NCBI GenBank assembly: GCA_017622795.1
Contig: JAGAQI010000131.1
Coordinates: 1-33,162 of the forward strand
Reading direction: 5' to 3'
Origin: Lachnospiraceae bacterium
GTDB taxonomy: Bacteria; Bacillota; Clostridia; Lachnospirales; Lachnospiraceae
Length of the DNA stretch: 33,162 nucleotides
Each line of letters begins with the position of its first letter. Position 1 is the stretch's first letter. The notes beneath the pieces are model-generated. The model ran no database searches. It worked only from the letters and a program-made list of their open reading frames with translations, and was not told the origin of the DNA. Shown piece after piece: positions 1 to 32,160 of this stretch. Position numbers and translations under genes: made by a program.

Positions 1-138
1 CCAAGCTGGGATATACATCCATGCTTGACTATTACCTAATAGTTCGTGAAAACTAAAGAACCGCCGTATACGAGAACCGTACGTACGGTGGTGTGAGAGG
101 TCGGGAAAATTTATTTCAAATTTTCCCTCCTACTCGAT
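1..138 (+). mobile_element. 3' end of a group II intron (domains V and VI)
   Basis: Only the tail of the intron is in the window. Domain V is visible at about 58-94: ACCGCCGTA (60-68) pairs with TACGGTGGT (84-92) around an ACGAGAACCGT-type tip. The linker GTGAGAGG follows. Domain VI is a 10-bp stem, 103-112 with 118-127, then TCCTACTCGAT, the usual bacterial 3' end with a branch-point A near 132. The intron is read rightward and ends at 138 or 139, three bases from the stop codon of the leftward DUF3021 gene, so it lies just outside that gene. Domain IV, where a reverse transcriptase/maturase would be encoded, is cut off by the window edge; no clear protein end can be read in 1-57. Confidence 0.85.
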
Positions 139-25838: not shown

Positions 25839-28361
25839 TTGAAAAGACCTATGTGTATATTAGCGGCTTCCTGGCTTGCCGGAATTCTCTTGGCAAGCCG
25901 TAAGCCGGAATTTGGAACATCGATAGTTCTGTTAGTATATTTTATTCTGATTATCGTCGGACTCTTAGTCTTAAAAAAACACCCCCAAAGTTTAAATCGA
26001 TATTTACAAACAGAGTGGTATCCGCAGTTTACATTTCTGCTTTTACTAATTCCCTGCCTTTTCCTTGCCGGCTTTTGGCGCATGGAAAACTATGCGGAGA
26101 AGAGTGAGTTGCAGGAACGTCCCTGGCAGCTGCTTGATTCCGAGGGAGAGAGCTATGTTACCGTGGAAGGGATTGTAATATCCAAAACAGTAGAAGATAA
26201 TGTGATTTTGGAGCTTACGGACTGTGAAATTATCGGATATTACGGGCAGGAAAACCAGTCAACAGGGGACTGCCGTGTCCGCGTGGAGGAAGAAGGAAAG
26301 GAATGGCTGCCGGAATCCGAGGTAGGAAACCGAATCCGGGTATTTGGCAAGTTTTCTACCTTTCAGCCAGCGGGAAATCCGGGCCAGTTTGATGCGTATG
26401 AGTATTATTCGGGAAAAGGAGTATTCGCTGATGTTTCTGCCTTACGGGTTACCATAATACAGGATACAAAGAGTGGGCCGGGGCAGGCATTCTTTTTGCT
26501 AAAGCAACGGTTACGGCAAAGTATCCGTTCTTTGTATCCGGAAGACAAAGCAGGGGTACTGACGGCTATGCTGTTGGGAGACAAGGATTTGCTTCCGGAA
26601 GAGATAGAAGCATTGTACCGCCAAAACGGTATCTCGCATATTCTTGCCATATCAGGCTTACATATTTCGATGTTATGCATGGGATTGTTCCGGGTGCTTC
26701 GGAAATTGACGGTACCGCTTCGGTTATCGGCGGTAACAGCGGTATTGTTTTTAGGGTTTTATGTAATTTTTACCGGAGCAAGTACTTCGTCGGTCAGAGC
26801 AGCAATTATGTGTCTGGTTACTTTTGGTGCCATACTACTGCGAAGAAGCTACGATTTGCTTTCTTCTCTTTCTTTTGCTGCTATTGCAGTTACTGCGATA
26901 TGGCCTGCAGAAGTAGACTCAGCCGGATTTCTTCTTTCTTTCGGGGCAGTGCTTGGGATAGCTTTGGCACAGGAAGCGGAATATGTGGTACAGCAGGAGT
27001 ATGACGGAAAACGGCCGTGGTGGTGTGTCATGCTGTACGGGGGCATGATTCAATGCATGACACTGCCGATATCCCTTTGGTTTTTCTATGAATTATCGCC
27101 ATACGGAATCTTCTTAAATCTTTTGGTAATCCCCTTGGTTTCCCTGATTATCGGCGGAGGTCTGATATCGGCAGTGTTGGGACTTTGGTGGCCGGTGCCT
27201 GCAAAGCTTCCGGTGGGCGGCACTTATCTTTTACTGGAATTTTATGAATGGCTGTGTGAGGTGACCCAGAAGCTTCCGTTTTCATTTGTATTGCTGGGGC
27301 AGCCGGCGGTGTGGCAGCTGGTGGTTTATTATGGCTTGTTGGCAGGGGTGCTTTGGTGTTTTTTCCGAAATGTCGCCGGAGAGAAGATATCCGGTTCTGC
27401 TACATCAGAGTCGTCTGTAACTGCTGTTCAAAAAAAGGAGGTTATACTGGCAGCCGGTCTGATTTGCACGATAGGAATATTATTTTTTCCGTCAAATAGG
27501 AACACAGAACTTTTATTTATGGACGTTTCCCAGGGAGATGGTGCGTTAATTACGACGCCAAACGGAACCGTGATTTTGTCGGACTGTGGCAGCAGCGATG
27601 TGCTTCAGTTGACAGAGTATCGTCTGTCTCCGGTGCTGAAATACAACGGAATTCTTCTTGTGGACATGGCGGTAGTTTCCCACCTGGATGCGGACCATAT
27701 TAGTGGTATCAGGGAACTTTTACGTGCAATGCCGGTATACGAAGGAGAAGTTGCTTTTGCCACCGGATATGCGGGTGCTGTGGGTGTAAAAGAGCTTGTT
27801 TTACCAAAGGTTTCAGAAAAATCAGAAGCATATTTGGAATTGGAGGCTTTGGCAAGTTCAAAGAATGTGAATGTCCGTTATATAGAAGCAGGTGAGATGC
27901 TATACCGGGAAAAAGAATTTCTCATGGAATGTCTGCATCCGTATCACGCGAAGGAATCGGACAATGACACATCTCTTGTATTTCTTTTGCAGACACCAAA
28001 GCTTGTTGCCTGGCTGACCGGGGATGCAGGTATTGCACCGGAGGCAGAGATTATTTCACATTTGGGAGCGGTGAATATGTCTGCTTTGCGTAATGGAAAG
28101 CTTGTGTTGCTTAAGGTTGGTCATCATGGTTCAAAAACGTCCTCAAGCCGGGAATTTATTGAGTATGTACAGCCGGATGTAGCGGTCATTTCCTGTGGTT
28201 ATCACAATTCCTACGGGCATCCTCATGCCGAAGTTGTGAATCGGCTTGCTGCCTCCGGTGCCGAGGTATTCCGTACGGATTTGCATGGGGCAGTTCTTGT
28301 GGAGGAGAAAGAGCGCAGGGGTGTTGTGGTGCACGGATGGAGGAAACTTGTTCGGGAGTAG
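25839..28361 (+). CDS. comEC: ComEC/Rec2 DNA-uptake channel protein
   Basis: An 840-residue full-length ComEC. An N-terminal DUF4131 region with membrane helices and an OB-like soluble part (about 1-210) leads into the competence membrane domain with GILSHILAISGLHISMLCMG-type and GASTSSVRAAIMCLV blocks. The C-terminus is a metallo-beta-lactamase-like nuclease domain (about 560-840) with SHLDADHISG, LTGDAG and VGHHGSKTSSS. It forms the channel for single-stranded DNA, and the nuclease domain is thought to degrade the other strand. The start is TTG, with AAGGAGAA about eight bases upstream; an ATG four codons on is the alternative. All key metal-binding blocks look intact. Confidence 0.93.
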   Translation: MKRPMCILAASWLAGILLASRKPEFGTSIVLLVYFILIIVGLLVLKKHPQSLNRYLQTEWYPQFTFLLLLIPCLFLAGFWRMENYAEKSELQERPWQLLDSEGESYVTVEGIVISKTVEDNVILELTDCEIIGYYGQENQSTGDCRVRVEEEGKEWLPESEVGNRIRVFGKFSTFQPAGNPGQFDAYEYYSGKGVFADVSALRVTIIQDTKSGPGQAFFLLKQRLRQSIRSLYPEDKAGVLTAMLLGDKDLLPEEIEALYRQNGISHILAISGLHISMLCMGLFRVLRKLTVPLRLSAVTAVLFLGFYVIFTGASTSSVRAAIMCLVTFGAILLRRSYDLLSSLSFAAIAVTAIWPAEVDSAGFLLSFGAVLGIALAQEAEYVVQQEYDGKRPWWCVMLYGGMIQCMTLPISLWFFYELSPYGIFLNLLVIPLVSLIIGGGLISAVLGLWWPVPAKLPVGGTYLLLEFYEWLCEVTQKLPFSFVLLGQPAVWQLVVYYGLLAGVLWCFFRNVAGEKISGSATSESSVTAVQKKEVILAAGLICTIGILFFPSNRNTELLFMDVSQGDGALITTPNGTVILSDCGSSDVLQLTEYRLSPVLKYNGILLVDMAVVSHLDADHISGIRELLRAMPVYEGEVAFATGYAGAVGVKELVLPKVSEKSEAYLELEALASSKNVNVRYIEAGEMLYREKEFLMECLHPYHAKESDNDTSLVFLLQTPKLVAWLTGDAGIAPEAEIISHLGAVNMSALRNGKLVLLKVGHHGSKTSSSREFIEYVQPDVAVISCGYHNSYGHPHAEVVNRLAASGAEVFRTDLHGAVLVEEKERRGVVVHGWRKLVRE

Positions 28362-28381
28362 AGCGCTATAAGGAGATACTG

Positions 28382-28462
28382 CTTATTTTTTGGTTGGATG
28401 CCCGACCAGGCGGTGAAAGTGTGGGCCTGGTCGGGCAGAAATCCAACCAATTAGAAAATAAG
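28382..28462. repeat. Long GC-cored palindromic hairpin after comEC
   Basis: Three nested arms: CTTATTTT (28382-28389) with AAAATAAG (28455-28462); TTGGTTGGAT (28390-28399) with ATCCAACCAA (28441-28450); and GCCCGACCAGGC (28400-28411) with GCCTGGTCGGGC (28425-28436), all perfect, with small 4-nt bulges on the 3' side. No T tract follows on either strand, so it is not a standard terminator. The CCAA at 28443 is the first member of the periodic array downstream. Confidence 0.85.
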
Positions 28463-28795
28463 AACATATAGTTGGGATGACGTTCAAAATCAAAAACCAA
28501 TCAAACAAGAAAGTATGTAGGTAAATTGGATTTCGATTTTTTGTGATTCCAATGAAATGAGGATAATTGCTGTTTTGTTGGCCTTACTTATTTTATAAAA
28601 TACCAACAGAAGATGGAAAATAAGACAAATATTGGTTTATGTAATTTTATAAAAACCAACAAAGTGAGAAAGAAAAGATTTAAGTTGGTTTTTTGAATTA
28701 CAATGGAGACCAACTAATTTGAATAAAGTGAGAATTTGTTGGTTAATAAAAAATTTTATGTACCAATAATTTTATGGTAATAAGCAATAAGTTGG
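28443..28795. repeat. Periodic array of alternating TTGG and CCAA cores, period 53-54 bp
   Basis: CCAA begins at 28443, 28497, 28549, 28603, 28656, 28710 and 28763; TTGG begins at 28472, 28526, 28578, 28632, 28685, 28739 and 28792. Every CCAA-to-TTGG step is exactly 29 bp; TTGG-to-CCAA steps are 23-25 bp. Most cores extend to 6-8 bp arms (for example AGTTGGT/ACCAACT at 28683-28715). Apart from CCAA at 28447, no core falls out of register up to 28795. The 25-base linkers after CCAA are mostly purine-rich, while segments between TTGG and CCAA are mostly T-rich or A/T palindromes such as TATTTTATAAAATA. The sequence between cores is not conserved. No gene lies in 28362-28821. Confidence 0.85.
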
Positions 28796-28821
28796 ATTTT
28801 GGAAACAGAAAGGACTGTAGA

Positions 28822-29640
28822 ATGAAAAGACTAGAATATATTTTGAAAGAAGAGTTAGCACAATTGAATCATGTAGTAGAAATGGCTAAACAAAGGCTTA
28901 ATCATGTGCCGGAAGGTCACCTGAGAGTCAGAGAATGGAATGGTAAGACGGAATATTACTATAGAAATAGTGAGTCGAAAGATACCAATGAAAGCAGGAG
29001 TAATGGTAGATATTTAAGAAAGCAGGAAAAGGTATTGGCAAAAAGTATTGCACAGCGGGATTATGATACTATGGTGATGAATAAAGCAAAGGAAAGAATT
29101 CATGCGATTGAAAAATTTCTTAGAACGTATGAAAGAACAAGTTTAAAACAATTATATCAAGATACAATTCCGGGACGGCGAAAACTAATTGAGGCAGAAA
29201 TAATCTCCGATGAAGAATACATCAGACAATGGCAAGATGTTAGTTACAAAGGGAAAAGTTTTGATGATGAGGAAAATGAAATTATAACAGAGCGAGGTGA
29301 ACGTGTCCGTTCAAAATCGGAGAAAATTATTGCAGATAAATTGCATGCATTGGGAATCCCGTATCGTTATGAATATCCGCTTACTCTGGTAGGAGGACTC
29401 AGGGTATATCCGGATTTTACAATTCTCAAAATGCCGGAGCGCGAAGAAGTATATTTGGAGCATTTTGGTATGATGGATGATGCAGACTATGCGGAAAATG
29501 CCTTACATAAGCTAAATACATTTGAGAAAAACAAGATATATCTGGGAGTGAATTTATTTATTACTCACGAAACAAGCAAAAATCCGCTGAATACCAGGGC
29601 ATTGGATGGCATGCTGAGGAAATTATTTTGTGAGGAATAG
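28822..29640 (+). CDS. PD-(D/E)XK nuclease-like protein of unknown function
   Basis: A 272-residue soluble protein. The N-terminal ~140 residues are charged, mostly helical and coiled-coil-prone, with a short strand region (HLRVREWNGKTEYYYRN). The C-terminal ~110 residues resemble a PD-(D/E)XK fold: an acidic helix RSKSEKIIADKLHALGIPY, the PD motif RVYPDFTIL, then EVYLEHFGMMDD, where Glu-His replaces the usual ExK, and a final NLFITHETS strand. I recall this architecture from unassigned proteins of Clostridia; no function is established. The ATG at 28822 has AAAGGA about eight bases upstream. The gene lies directly behind the periodic array, is AT-richer than its neighbours and interrupts the comEC-holA pair, suggesting later acquisition. 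Confidence 0.65.
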   Translation: MKRLEYILKEELAQLNHVVEMAKQRLNHVPEGHLRVREWNGKTEYYYRNSESKDTNESRSNGRYLRKQEKVLAKSIAQRDYDTMVMNKAKERIHAIEKFLRTYERTSLKQLYQDTIPGRRKLIEAEIISDEEYIRQWQDVSYKGKSFDDEENEIITERGERVRSKSEKIIADKLHALGIPYRYEYPLTLVGGLRVYPDFTILKMPEREEVYLEHFGMMDDADYAENALHKLNTFEKNKIYLGVNLFITHETSKNPLNTRALDGMLRKLFCEE

Positions 29641-29720
29641 CGTGTACATTTTTGTGAAAATGTGGTATTCTAAAAATGAATCGTATTAATTATGTATTGT
29701 TCTTTTTCGAAAATTTTGAG

Positions 29721-29741
29721 TGACAAAGGGACTGTTTGTCA
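29721..29741 (+). promoter_or_regulatory. Inverted repeat next to the holA ribosome binding site
   Basis: TGACAAA (29721-29727) pairs with TTTGTCA (29735-29741) around a 7-nt loop, ending directly before AGGAG. It could be an operator or a small RNA hairpin. Confidence 0.35.
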
Positions 29742-29752
29742 AGGAGCCATCC

Positions 29753-30715
29753 ATGAAAAACATTAAAGAAGACATTAAAAATAGAGAGTTTAAGCGGGTT
29801 TACCTTCTGTACGGCACGGAGGAGTATTTAAAGCGCCTGTATAAAAATAAGCTGAAGGAAGCGGTGCTTCAGGATTCCGACGCCATGAATATGGCGGAGT
29901 ATGCCGGTAAAGGAATTGATGAAAAAGAGGTAAGAGAGTTTGCTGATACATTGCCGTTTTTTGCGGACTATCATTTGCTGATTTTGGAGAATACCGGCTG
30001 GTTTAAGAACTCTACAGACTTTGCGGACTATATACCGGAGCTTCCGGACACGGCAGTGCTTGTGTTTGTGGAAACCGAGGTAGATAAGCGGAGCCGCATG
30101 TATAAGGCGGTGAAGGAGCATGGCTACGTTTGTGAGATGAACGGTATGACCGAACAGGAACTGAAAATGTGGGTAGCTTCCCTGCTGAAGCGGGAAGAGC
30201 GTAAAATTACGGAATCAACCATCGAATTCCTTTTGGAGCAGGCGGGCACCGATATGGCAAAGCTTCAGAACGAGTTGGAAAAACTGGTTTGCTATACGAT
30301 GGGCAGAGATGTGGTTACTGCAGAAGACATCAGACAGGTGTGTTCTGAACAGATTACGGGCAAAATATTTGTTATGGTAGAAGCTATGGCACAGGGACGT
30401 AAAAAACAGGCTTTAGAGCTGTATTATGACCTGATTGCCTTGCAGGAAAAACCGATGGGTATCCTGTATATGATTCAGCGGCAGTTCCATTATTTGCTGA
30501 TTGTAAAAGAAATGAAAAAGAACCGTGCAGATAAAGGCAGTATCGCCTCTGCTCTCGGAGTACCTCCTTTTGCTGTACAAAAGTATATGGCTCAGGCAGA
30601 CCGCTTCCAAATGGAGGATTTAAAGAAGCTGGTAAATTACAGCCTCACCTTGGAGGAAGATGTAAAGTCCGGACGTTTGAAGGAGCAGCTGGCAGTAGAA
30701 TTATTGCTCGGATAA
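29753..30715 (+). CDS. holA: DNA polymerase III delta subunit
   Basis: A 320-residue clamp-loader subunit that opens the sliding clamp. It opens with the usual MKNIKEDIKNREFKRVYLLYG and YLKRLYKNKL blocks, has a degenerate AAA-like domain 1 without a working Walker A, a central FLLEQAGTDMAKLQNELEKLVCY segment, and the C-terminal collar domain with ALELYYDLIALQEKPMGILYMIQRQF. Length fits the family. AAGGAG lies seven bases before the ATG; the frame is open from 29720 without a binding site. In Firmicutes holA usually directly follows comEC; here about 1.4 kb intervenes. Confidence 0.92.
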   Translation: MKNIKEDIKNREFKRVYLLYGTEEYLKRLYKNKLKEAVLQDSDAMNMAEYAGKGIDEKEVREFADTLPFFADYHLLILENTGWFKNSTDFADYIPELPDTAVLVFVETEVDKRSRMYKAVKEHGYVCEMNGMTEQELKMWVASLLKREERKITESTIEFLLEQAGTDMAKLQNELEKLVCYTMGRDVVTAEDIRQVCSEQITGKIFVMVEAMAQGRKKQALELYYDLIALQEKPMGILYMIQRQFHYLLIVKEMKKNRADKGSIASALGVPPFAVQKYMAQADRFQMEDLKKLVNYSLTLEEDVKSGRLKEQLAVELLLG

Positions 30716-30795
30716 ATTATTGAAACTTTTTCCTGCGGGTTTGCGTCTAATGGATAAAGGCGAATGAAGTCGCAGAAGGAAAGGATGATTTGATA

Positions 30796-32160
30796 ATGAA
30801 GAAAAAATTTTTGTGCATGATATTATGTGGCTGCATGCTTGCAGGAATGGCGGGTTGTGTCGGAGAGGATGCTATGGGAGGCGAAACTGTGACACCGGGA
30901 AAAGAAAACGAAGTTACAAGCATTCCGGTAGAAGATTTGGCAGACGGCAATCTGCCTGCAGAAGCACCGGAAGAACTGCTTACCGAAACCGTAGACCTAA
31001 TGGGCGGCATCGAACTGATGGCTACGGAGTGGAACGATAATTTCCCGGAGCATCCGATTACTCAGTTTGGTGTGCCAATGTTTCAGAATGCCTTAAAAGA
31101 GGCAGGGAATGGTGAAAATGTGTTGGTTTCCCCAATGTCAGCCTGGACAGTACTTTGCATGGTAGAAGCCGGAGCAAACGGTGAAACTAAGCAGCAGATG
31201 CAGGAGGCTTTGGCAGTTACCGAAGGTGATTATCTGACCTATGCAAAGAAGTTTACTTTCCTGCTTCCGGAAAATGACAATTGCAAGGTGCACATGGCAA
31301 ACGGTATCTGGTACAAGAACGTACCAAGTCTTCATGTGAACGATTACTTTTTGCAGTACAACAAAACCTTTTTTGATGCAGCAGCTTATAAGGCCCCGTT
31401 TGATGCAAGTACCCTGCAAAACATCAATGACTGGGTTTCTGAAAACACCGACGGTATGATTCCGGGCATCCTGAAAGAAATCGATCCAACGGACGTAATT
31501 TATCTGGTAAATGCCTTAAGCTTTGATGCAAGATGGGGCAAGATTTATAGCGAAACAGACATCTGGAATGATATTTTCACTACAGAAGCAGGCGAAGAAA
31601 AGCTGGTTTCCATGATGCATTCCGACGAAAATCTGTATCTGGAGGATGAAAACACCACCGGCTTTATCAAATATTATGACGACAATGAGTACGCTTTTGT
31701 GGCATTGCTTCCGGCGGAAGGCATGACCATGGAAGAGTATGTGGAGAGCCTGACCGCAGAAAAGCTTCGTGCACTTTTCAATGGCAAAATACCGACAGAA
31801 GTAAAAGCAACCCTGCCGAAATTCTCTGTGGATTATGGTTTTAACATGAATAACATTTTACAGCAGATGGGCATGACGGATGCTTTTTCTGACAGCGATG
31901 CGGATTTTACCAAGATGGCAACCTCTGATGCGGGCAACATTTATATCAGCAGTGTAGACCAGAAGTGCTTTATTGCAGTGGACGAATACGGCACGAAAGC
32001 AGGAGCCGCAACGGCAGTGGCTATGCAGAATAAGGCCCTGTCCTTACAGCCGGTAAAGGTAGTCAACTTAAACCGTCCGTTCGTATATCTGATTGTGGAA
32101 TGTGATAATTTTGAGCCGCTGTTTATGGGCACAATAATGAATGTGGAGGAAGCCAAATGA
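30796..32160 (+). CDS. Serpin-family lipoprotein protease inhibitor
   Basis: A 454-residue secreted lipoprotein. The signal peptide ends in a lipobox (GMAGC, Cys at residue 21), followed by an acidic linker to about residue 75, then a full serpin fold: NVLVSPMSAWTVLCMVEAGANGETKQQM, the breach/shutter NALSFDARWGKIYSE block, FVALLPAEGMTMEEYV, and the KCFIAVDEYGTKAGAATAVAM hinge before the reactive loop. The small residues in the hinge (GTKAGAATA) fit an inhibitory, loop-inserting serpin. The loop ends before VVNLNRPFVYLIVE; the P1 residue cannot be set confidently. Gut bacterial serpins inhibit host elastase-like proteases, a possible role here. Its stop overlaps the DUF6472 start. Confidence 0.9.
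   Translation: MKKKFLCMILCGCMLAGMAGCVGEDAMGGETVTPGKENEVTSIPVEDLADGNLPAEAPEELLTETVDLMGGIELMATEWNDNFPEHPITQFGVPMFQNALKEAGNGENVLVSPMSAWTVLCMVEAGANGETKQQMQEALAVTEGDYLTYAKKFTFLLPENDNCKVHMANGIWYKNVPSLHVNDYFLQYNKTFFDAAAYKAPFDASTLQNINDWVSENTDGMIPGILKEIDPTDVIYLVNALSFDARWGKIYSETDIWNDIFTTEAGEEKLVSMMHSDENLYLEDENTTGFIKYYDDNEYAFVALLPAEGMTMEEYVESLTAEKLRALFNGKIPTEVKATLPKFSVDYGFNMNNILQQMGMTDAFSDSDADFTKMATSDAGNIYISSVDQKCFIAVDEYGTKAGAATAVAMQNKALSLQPVKVVNLNRPFVYLIVECDNFEPLFMGTIMNVEEAK

What the first reader, a model, noticed from the sequence alone, without database searches (positions are those of the whole stretch)
28443..29640. Strictly periodic TTGG/CCAA array directly upstream of a PD-(D/E)XK nuclease-like gene
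Seven CCAA cores and seven TTGG cores alternate over about 350 bp. All seven CCAA-to-TTGG steps are exactly 29 bp and the six TTGG-to-CCAA steps are 23-25 bp, giving a 53-54 bp period (about five helical turns), yet sequence between the cores is not conserved. This is neither a CRISPR array nor a simple tandem repeat. It could be a structured RNA in which each core can pair with either neighbour, or a row of evenly phased protein-binding dyads. The gene directly behind encodes a nuclease-like protein. A nuclease paired with a repeat-bearing RNA or DNA element would be a new type of system, for example toxin/antitoxin or defence.
Basis: partly seen in the sequence, partly recalled or inferred. 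Interest (0 to 1): 0.87.

Follow-up and report, generated by a model that had tools for sequence, protein, structure and literature searches.

The report
Nuclease gene with phased DNA-site arrays
Many gut and rumen bacteria carry a small nuclease-like gene next to a row of short mirrored DNA sites spaced by whole turns of the double helix, and sequence comparisons suggest that the protein's own front end reads those sites; no description of such a pairing turned up in the literature searched.

Summary
It belongs to a large family. Of 185 non-redundant homologues, 112 have an inverted-core array upstream, against 0 of 185 shuffles. Periods cluster at 53, 63, 74, 85, 95 and 106 bp, multiples of about 10.45 bp. 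A held-out set repeats this (74 of 93 loci periodic, R(10.5)=0.82). Whole B-DNA turns, and G.T and A.C mismatches in near-equal number, point to sites on double-stranded DNA, not RNA.

Cores differ between cassettes even within one genome (21 of 22 pairs). They co-vary with the protein's N-terminal half (partial r=0.59, 0 of 1000 permutations) and not with its nuclease half (-0.02). So the nuclease itself most likely reads the array. The same dyads also form stand-alone intergenic arrays: two more in this genome, eight in a congener, none with the gene nearby.

Best reading: a dimeric array-binding nuclease that covers its own leader DNA (probably autorepression and storage) and extra sites elsewhere. 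What it cuts is unknown. It fails defining tests of CRISPR, TIGR-Tas, type III toxin-antitoxin and REPtron systems.

The parts
28390..28450 (.). 5' terminal element: TTGGTTGG...CCAACCAA enclosing a GC-rich inverted repeat (GCCCGACCAGGC/GCCTGGTCGGGC)
   Evidence: sequence; by eye its inner arms resemble the CCCGACTA-type cores of relatives L002-L004
28443..28475 (.). dyad 1, CCAA-N25-TTGG
28497..28529 (.). dyad 2
28549..28581 (.). dyad 3
28603..28635 (.). dyad 4
28656..28688 (.). dyad 5
28710..28742 (.). dyad 6
28763..28795 (.). dyad 7, ending 26 bp before the start codon at 28822
28822..29640 (+). 272-residue two-domain protein, PD-(D/E)XK-like nuclease
   Evidence: no Pfam or NCBIfam match at E<=0.1; PADLOC PDC-S68 C-terminus E=2.5e-27
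28822..29121 (+). N-terminal ~100 residues, inferred core-reading domain (strongest association at residues 25-47)
   Evidence: core similarity tracks this half and not the nuclease half
29287..29637 (+). C-terminal nuclease domain (residues 156-272) with invariant S164, K165, E167, D198, E213, H214
   Evidence: alignment of 69 sequences; PADLOC match at 166-285 in the 288-residue numbering

Best explanation
The cassette (array plus one gene) encodes a sequence-specific DNA-binding nuclease and its own binding array. Shown by comparison: the sites are inverted pairs with half-site cores about 29 bp apart, and successive dyads lie a whole number of B-DNA turns apart (mostly 5 to 10). Shown statistically: the core is matched to the N-terminal half of the protein beside it. 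Inferred: a protein dimer occupies each dyad, and dimers on one face of the DNA bind cooperatively along the array. Inferred: because the array fills the leader between the upstream gene and the start codon, occupancy represses the gene and holds the nuclease in a bound, idle state; stand-alone arrays elsewhere act as further anchoring or titrating sites. Inferred and weakest: the nuclease acts when released, or on DNA outside the array, as a defence or self-maintenance device. The invariant putative catalytic residues say that cutting matters.
For: Period quantised to 10.4-10.5 bp: at z>=5, discovery 63 of 96 and held-out 74 of 93 non-redundant loci periodic, R(10.5)=0.825 and 0.818 (these counts still include loci with masked bases). 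Without the loci that hold masked bases (L198, L206, L207, L211), 109 of 185 loci at z>=6 and period 38-112, R=0.88, 0 of 2000 jittered sets as high; at 45% identity clustering n=30 of 60, R=0.86. Linkers change inside single arrays by about one or more turns while the ~29 bp distance stays (L014, L023, L030, L039, L050, L151, L234, L256). Enriched upstream of the nuclease against three control regions. Core co-varies with residues 1-148 (partial r=0.59), peak 25-47; residues 91-154, about as variable, show none (0.03). 21 of 22 same-genome pairs have different cores, which argues against one host factor. Stand-alone arrays keep core and register. No RNA wobble bias. Presence/absence as a unit: congener G003 has a bare comEC-holA junction.
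Against: No binding, expression or cleavage data. 52 of 189 non-redundant loci are not periodic at z>=5 and 73 of 185 have no core at score 15, so the array is not universal. Six distant copies in the window's genus (L296-L301) show no CCAA dyad and only L299 reaches z=5. Two periodic loci fit whole turns poorly: L113 (70 bp) and L254 (71 bp). In 5 loci the ~29 bp distance itself changes by 8-12 bp (L009, L034, L055, L097, L229). Gene and array are inherited together, so part of the co-variation is common descent, although the contrast between the two halves is not explained by that alone; the core-similarity score under-calls some pairs. Arrays also lie downstream of the gene in L026, L028, L065 and L071, and stand-alone arrays lie between convergent genes (3 of 8 in G002 by my reading of the ORFs), so autorepression cannot be the whole role. 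The cognate nuclease of the G002 arrays was not seen; no holA was found in that assembly. Purine-rich spacers (39 of 115 loci with skew above 0.3) are unexplained.
Confidence: 0.62

Rival explanations
1. REPtron-like selfish system: the nuclease copies or spreads its cognate palindromic arrays through the chromosome, and the arrays are substrates rather than operators.
For: Cognate dyads form eight stand-alone intergenic arrays in G002 and two in G000 with no family member in the fetched DNA, and an array of L071's core lies at a contig start in the same genome (G444) with no family member in the 1.5 kb seen. Core and protein co-diverge, as REPs and TnpA-REP do (PMC8266576, abstract and introduction read). 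Presence is patchy, 126 of 397 genomes.
Against: No HUH protein (the window protein has no Pfam match). Spacers of the arrays are about equally alike between and within arrays (0.45 best strand and 0.44), so there is no sign of recent copying. Whole-turn phasing is not a known REP feature (recalled). In G001 no second array was found by DNA similarity.
Confidence: 0.18
2. Chromosome-organising or segregation sites: arrays are anchoring points for the protein, which is mainly architectural.
For: Eight dispersed arrays in G002 with conserved dyads and phased spacing.
Against: Members occur in only 126 of 397 genomes of the family, often in several copies with different cores, and putative nuclease residues are invariant in 69 of 69 aligned sequences.
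Confidence: 0.08
3. Structured or guide RNA made from the array (type III toxin-antitoxin, TIGR or CRISPR-like), with the nuclease as toxin or effector.
For: Strong predicted fold of the + strand (z=-7.9); the last core lies under 60 nt from the start codon in 43 of 115 loci, which leaves little room for a separate promoter; purine-rich spacers.
Against: Whole-turn B-DNA step; 268 G.T against 287 A.C mismatches; no Rfam match at gathering threshold at 28381-28821; inverted repeats of any kind fold well, so the fold score is expected.
Confidence: 0.05
4. A host DNA-binding protein reads the array and the nuclease gene is only its neighbour.
For: Dispersed arrays without the gene.
Against: Different cores in the same genome (21 of 22 pairs); core tracks the N-terminal half of the cassette protein.
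Confidence: 0.05

Closest known systems
REPtron (TnpA-REP/RAYT with REP or BIME palindromes)
   Same: One gene with cognate palindromic repeats beside it and elsewhere in intergenic DNA; protein and repeat co-diverge
   Different: PD-(D/E)XK-like nuclease instead of HUH enzyme; no GTAG motif in the window consensus; dyads phased at whole DNA turns; cassettes with different cores coexist in one genome
I-TevI of phage T4 (homing endonuclease that represses its own gene)
   Same: A nuclease with a separable DNA-reading domain that can bind operator DNA before its own gene and cuts it far less (PMC2988022, passages read)
   Different: One operator, GIY-YIG domain, intron-borne; here seven dyads, another nuclease fold, chromosomal intergenic cassette
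Phage lambda repressor on operators spaced by whole turns (recalled, no paper seen)
   Same: Dimers on dyads that bind cooperatively when on the same face of DNA
   Different: Not a nuclease; a few operators rather than long arrays
PADLOC candidate PDC-S68
   Same: Its C-terminal ~120 residues are homologous to the nuclease domain (E=2.5e-27)
   Different: Model of 1221 positions matched only at its C-terminus; whether it has an array was not tested
TIGR-Tas
   Same: Array of alternating short elements, up- and/or downstream of a small effector gene, element sequence varying by locus (PMC12045711, passages read)
   Different: Effector is a Nop-domain protein and the array makes 36-nt guide RNAs; no Nop match here and no RNA evidence

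Membership tests
REPtron (REPIN-RAYT) | HUH (Y1) TnpA-REP protein | tested here: not met
   Window protein: no Pfam match at E<=0.1, none in NCBIfam
REPtron (REPIN-RAYT) | Cognate palindromes dispersed in intergenic DNA | tested here: met
   Eight arrays in G002 and two beyond the window in G000; not found by similarity in G001
REPtron (REPIN-RAYT) | Conserved GTAG tetranucleotide | tested here: not met
   Window-type consensus CCAACAAATT...AATTTGTTGG
TIGR-Tas | Nop-domain effector | tested here: not met
   No Pfam match
TIGR-Tas | Array processed into guide RNAs | not testable with these tools
   No transcript data; wobble test gives no sign of RNA pairing
CRISPR array | Near-identical repeats with unique spacers | tested here: not met
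   Only the dyad consensus is shared in the window; tandem repeat finder reports nothing there
Type III toxin-antitoxin | ToxN/AbiQ/CptN-type endoribonuclease | tested here: not met
   No Pfam or NCBIfam match
PD-(D/E)XK nuclease superfamily | Acidic catalytic residues on the core fold | tested here: inconclusive
Integrase arm-binding / AP2-like beta-sheet domain | Recognisable profile match of the N-terminal domain | tested here: not met
   No such family among the 25 of 62 weak Pfam families listed for 52 members nor in the PDB profile search; the resemblance is recalled only
Homing endonuclease | Recognition site split by the insertion | tested here: inconclusive
   By eye the bare comEC-holA junction of G003 shows no core dyad; one genome only

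The most novel reading that the evidence does not exclude
A new class of single-gene systems in which a nuclease is controlled by DNA instead of by an antitoxin: a phased array of its own recognition dyads, in the cassette and at stand-alone chromosomal sites, holds the enzyme idle, and loss, damage or out-titration of that DNA-bound state (for example by invading or degraded DNA) lets it cut.
Probability: 0.22. Interest if true: 0.93.

Novelty: categorically new. Interest (0 to 1): 0.85.

Why it matters
The family is common (126 of 397 genomes of the window's family at E<=1e-10; also Treponema and Fibrobacter by the record titles), the window protein has no Pfam or NCBIfam match, and each cassette with an array carries its own predicted recognition sequence. 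That gives a natural collection of DNA-reading domains with matched targets, a built-in readout of helical phasing, and a directly testable question: how can a nuclease live beside so many of its own sites?

Tried and rejected
Rfam scan of the window (gathering threshold): only a group II intron at 59-138. RNA fold z=-7.9 was not taken as evidence because any inverted-repeat array folds. Integrase arm-binding or AP2-like identity of the N-terminal domain: no support. PDB sequence matches: none convincing. Phages and plasmids: 1 of 3 phage-record hits and 0 of 6 plasmid hits cover at least 80% of the protein; viral contigs only nuclease-domain hits (8 loci). Defence or partner genes beside the cassette: 90 of 147 neighbour ORFs scanned (I left out mainly short or doubtful ORFs); the commonest Pfam neighbour is comEC (Competence 7 of 90, Lactamase_B 8), no other listed family in more than 3; PADLOC matches are led by metallo-beta-lactamase-type models (8 of 90) and mad3 (4 of 90); both lists are capped at 25 families. 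Promoter-like sites at 28200-29800: 7 found, 5.5 expected. L206 and L207 first looked like exceptions (periods 28 and 25) but are artefacts of N-masked stretches. Departures of spacing inside arrays are also phased but noisily (96 spacings in 46 loci, R=0.49 at 10.5). The automatic core-similarity score under-calls some pairs (window and L001 share CCAAY...RTTGG at the same spacing, yet score 3), and the automatic choice of the fixed distance picks 25 instead of 29 in the window itself. Literature searches without a matching system: (terms as listed there); open-access full text only.

Full report
What is there. The array at 28443-28795 is real and exact: seven CCAA-N25-TTGG dyads, all at 29 bp, separated by 23-25 bp, with no such dyad elsewhere in the window and at most one in any of 5000 dinucleotide shuffles. 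It lies between comEC (ORF 25839-28361) and holA (ORF 29720-30715), directly before a 272-residue ORF at 28822-29640. The protein has no Pfam or NCBIfam match; its last ~120 residues match PADLOC's candidate PDC-S68 (E=2.5e-27) and other PD-DExK models. In an alignment of 69 sequences (window plus 68 of the 80 loci) S164, K165, E167, D198, E213, H214, F215 and G216 are invariant. The lysine usual after the second acid is absent, so PD-(D/E)XK membership is likely but not proved.

It is a family. A scan of genome contigs found 257 relatives, of which the best 80 were kept, mostly Lachnospiraceae, Treponema and Fibrobacter by record titles. In seven genomes already known to hold one, the matches per genome were 8, 5, 1, 7, 3, 1 and 5, at least four of these 30 being fragments (L157, L161, L165, L170). 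Phage and plasmid records hold almost none, and the viral-contig scan only the nuclease domain (8 loci).

The array is a family trait, but its sequence is not. Upstream of other members lie arrays with other cores, for example TAGTYGGG/CCCRACTA (L002), GGAAYGGG (L010), CCTACAG/CTGTAGG (L039), TACATGA (L036). A blind autocorrelation scan found a dominant period at z>=5 in 64 of 100 loci (104 loci held, 4 with under 250 nt upstream), clustering at 53, 63, 74, 85, 95 and 106 bp. I then drew a second set (119 loci located, L141-L260; 93 non-redundant with at least 250 nt upstream) and repeated the test unchanged: 74 of 93 periodic, best step 10.40 bp, R(10.5)=0.818. Removing loci with masked bases (L198, L206, L207, L211) leaves 109 of 185 non-redundant loci at z>=6 with period 38-112, best step 10.45 bp, R=0.88, against a maximum of 0.31 in 2000 jittered sets; at 45% clustering n=30 of 60 and R=0.86. 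Regression of period on number of turns gives slopes of 10.38 to 10.45 bp. Controls: 42 of 71 nuclease upstream regions reach z>=5, against 4 of 65 regions further upstream, 0 of 80 nuclease ORFs and 3 of 74 downstream regions. Inverted cores at score>=15 occur in 112 of 185 loci, 0 of 185 shuffles, and 0 of 65, 1 of 80 and 1 of 74 control regions. Arrays are not confined to the upstream side: L026, L028, L065 and L071 have one downstream.

Geometry. Two distances alternate. One is about 29 bp (mode mean 28.9, sd 3.5, 112 loci; it was chosen as the one nearest 29, so its mean is partly by definition, and in the window itself this rule picks 25). The other is mostly 22-26, 31-38, 41-49 or 52-58 bp; the split depends on which 8-mer was taken as core. 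Where an array is irregular, the linker alone changes in 27 of 47 loci, often by about 10-12 or 20-22 bp (L014, L023, L030, L039, L050, L151, L234, L256), the ~29 bp distance alone in 12, about seven of these by roughly a whole period because a core was missed, both in 7, and one falls in none of these classes; five loci (L009, L034, L055, L097, L229) change the ~29 bp distance by 8-12 bp. So the usual unit is a dyad with half-sites about 29 bp apart, and dyads are set whole turns apart. Two periodic loci fit poorly, L113 (70 bp) and L254 (71 bp).

DNA rather than RNA. The step fits B-DNA. In 115 loci, mismatches inside dyads are 268 G.T and 287 A.C; 51 loci have more G.T and 43 more A.C (p=0.47), so pairing in an RNA of either strand leaves no trace. 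For the RNA reading stand the strong predicted fold, a last core within 60 nt of the start codon in 43 of 115 loci, and purine-rich spacers in 39 of 115 (5 of 115 pyrimidine-rich).

Who reads it. Core similarity falls steeply with protein identity: 5 of 6 pairs at >=70%, 26% of 46 pairs at 60-70%, 4% of 196 at 50-60%, under 1% below. Among 184 pairs at >=52% identity, core similarity tracks the N-terminal 148 residues (partial r 0.59) and not the C-terminal part (-0.02), with the peak at residues 25-47. The result survives removal of each of 12 clusters (0.53-0.63); 0 of 1000 within-cluster permutations reach it (mean 0.18, maximum 0.39); and windows over residues 91-154, about as variable as the N-terminus (mean identity 0.48 vs 0.44), show no association (0.03 vs 0.28). 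Within one genome, 21 of 22 pairs of cassettes have different cores (11 genomes with two or more called cores, of 22 examined; the score under-calls some likenesses). A shared host factor cannot read all of these; the gene in the cassette can. The N-terminal pattern (PxGxLRI...QYY...GxYI...LAQKDYD) reminds me of three-stranded arm-binding domains of integrases, but that is recall, and profile searches gave no support.

Stand-alone arrays. A pattern of two successive window-type dyads hits only 2 of 61 genomes, both of the window's genus: G000 at three places (two besides the window) and G002 at eight; the reversed pattern gives none. By my reading of the ORFs these lie in intergenic DNA, in G002 three between convergent genes, the others tandem or divergent; a profile search of the fetched 3-6.5 kb around each finds no family member (two of the ten lie near contig ends). 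Their spacings are 52-54, 85, 105, 137 and 158 bp, several of the gaps holding weaker dyads in register. G003, which has no family member, has none; G001, whose nuclease has another core, has none of this type. G002's own nuclease homologues carry other or no arrays; no holA was found in its assembly, so its cognate nuclease at comEC-holA may be unassembled, or lost. In G444 an array of L071's core lies at a contig start with no family member in the 1.5 kb after it.

Cassette behaviour. Congener G003 has comEC followed by holA with a short spacer and no cassette. A comEC match lies in 19 of 165 loci, including Fibrobacter L053; this count is not de-duplicated (L172 is the window, L146 repeats L053, L095 very likely repeats L002). 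In L071 a second, displaced comEC 3' end lies downstream of the cassette, which suggests arrival by recombination together with a comEC tail; the repeat search of the same call found no up/downstream likeness in the window and 12 other comEC loci.

How it probably works. A dimer on each 33-bp dyad, dimers aligned on one face and cooperative (inference from phasing; lambda repressor is the recalled precedent), a nuclease domain kept for cutting (invariant residues), and occupancy of the gene's own leader giving repression and storage (inference from position; I-TevI is the precedent for a nuclease repressing its own gene, PMC2988022 passages). Stand-alone arrays between convergent genes show that gene control is not the only role. 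What the enzyme cuts is unknown. REPtrons are the nearest organisation (PMC8266576 abstract and introduction), but the protein, the motif and the phasing differ. TIGR-Tas (PMC12045711 passages) shares only the look of a locus-specific array of alternating elements. Five literature searches found no description.

Limits. No structure prediction was available. Between a quarter and two fifths of the loci show no clear array by these methods (52 of 189 below z=5; 73 of 185 without a core). Linked inheritance inflates the core-protein correlation, though not the contrast between the two halves. The stand-alone arrays were sought with one core in 61 genomes only.

Noticed in passing
L071:3735-3870: A second, displaced comEC 3' end lies downstream of the cassette and its downstream array, while a comEC end lies upstream: a trace of acquisition by recombination.
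   Followed up: partly
window 59-138: A group II intron match by Rfam.
   Followed up: no
L050:3334-3600: A near-perfect 37-bp tandem repeat array right after a nuclease gene, unlike the phased dyads.
   Followed up: no
L289:1550-1800: A different repeat array beside hicAB-like genes (by eye) in the genome of L071.
   Followed up: no
L026:3407-3851, L028:900-1500, L065:1802-2240: Phased dyad arrays downstream of the nuclease instead of, or in addition to, upstream.
   Followed up: partly
L296-L301: Distant copies of the gene in the window's genus have few or irregular dyads and a promoter-like TGnTnnAAT-type stretch just before the gene (by eye).
   Followed up: partly
G000 contig C8 (L082, L083): Matches are placed symmetrically on the contig, as in an inverted duplication or misassembly.
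   Followed up: no
window 30790-32160: A serpin gene close behind holA.
   Followed up: no
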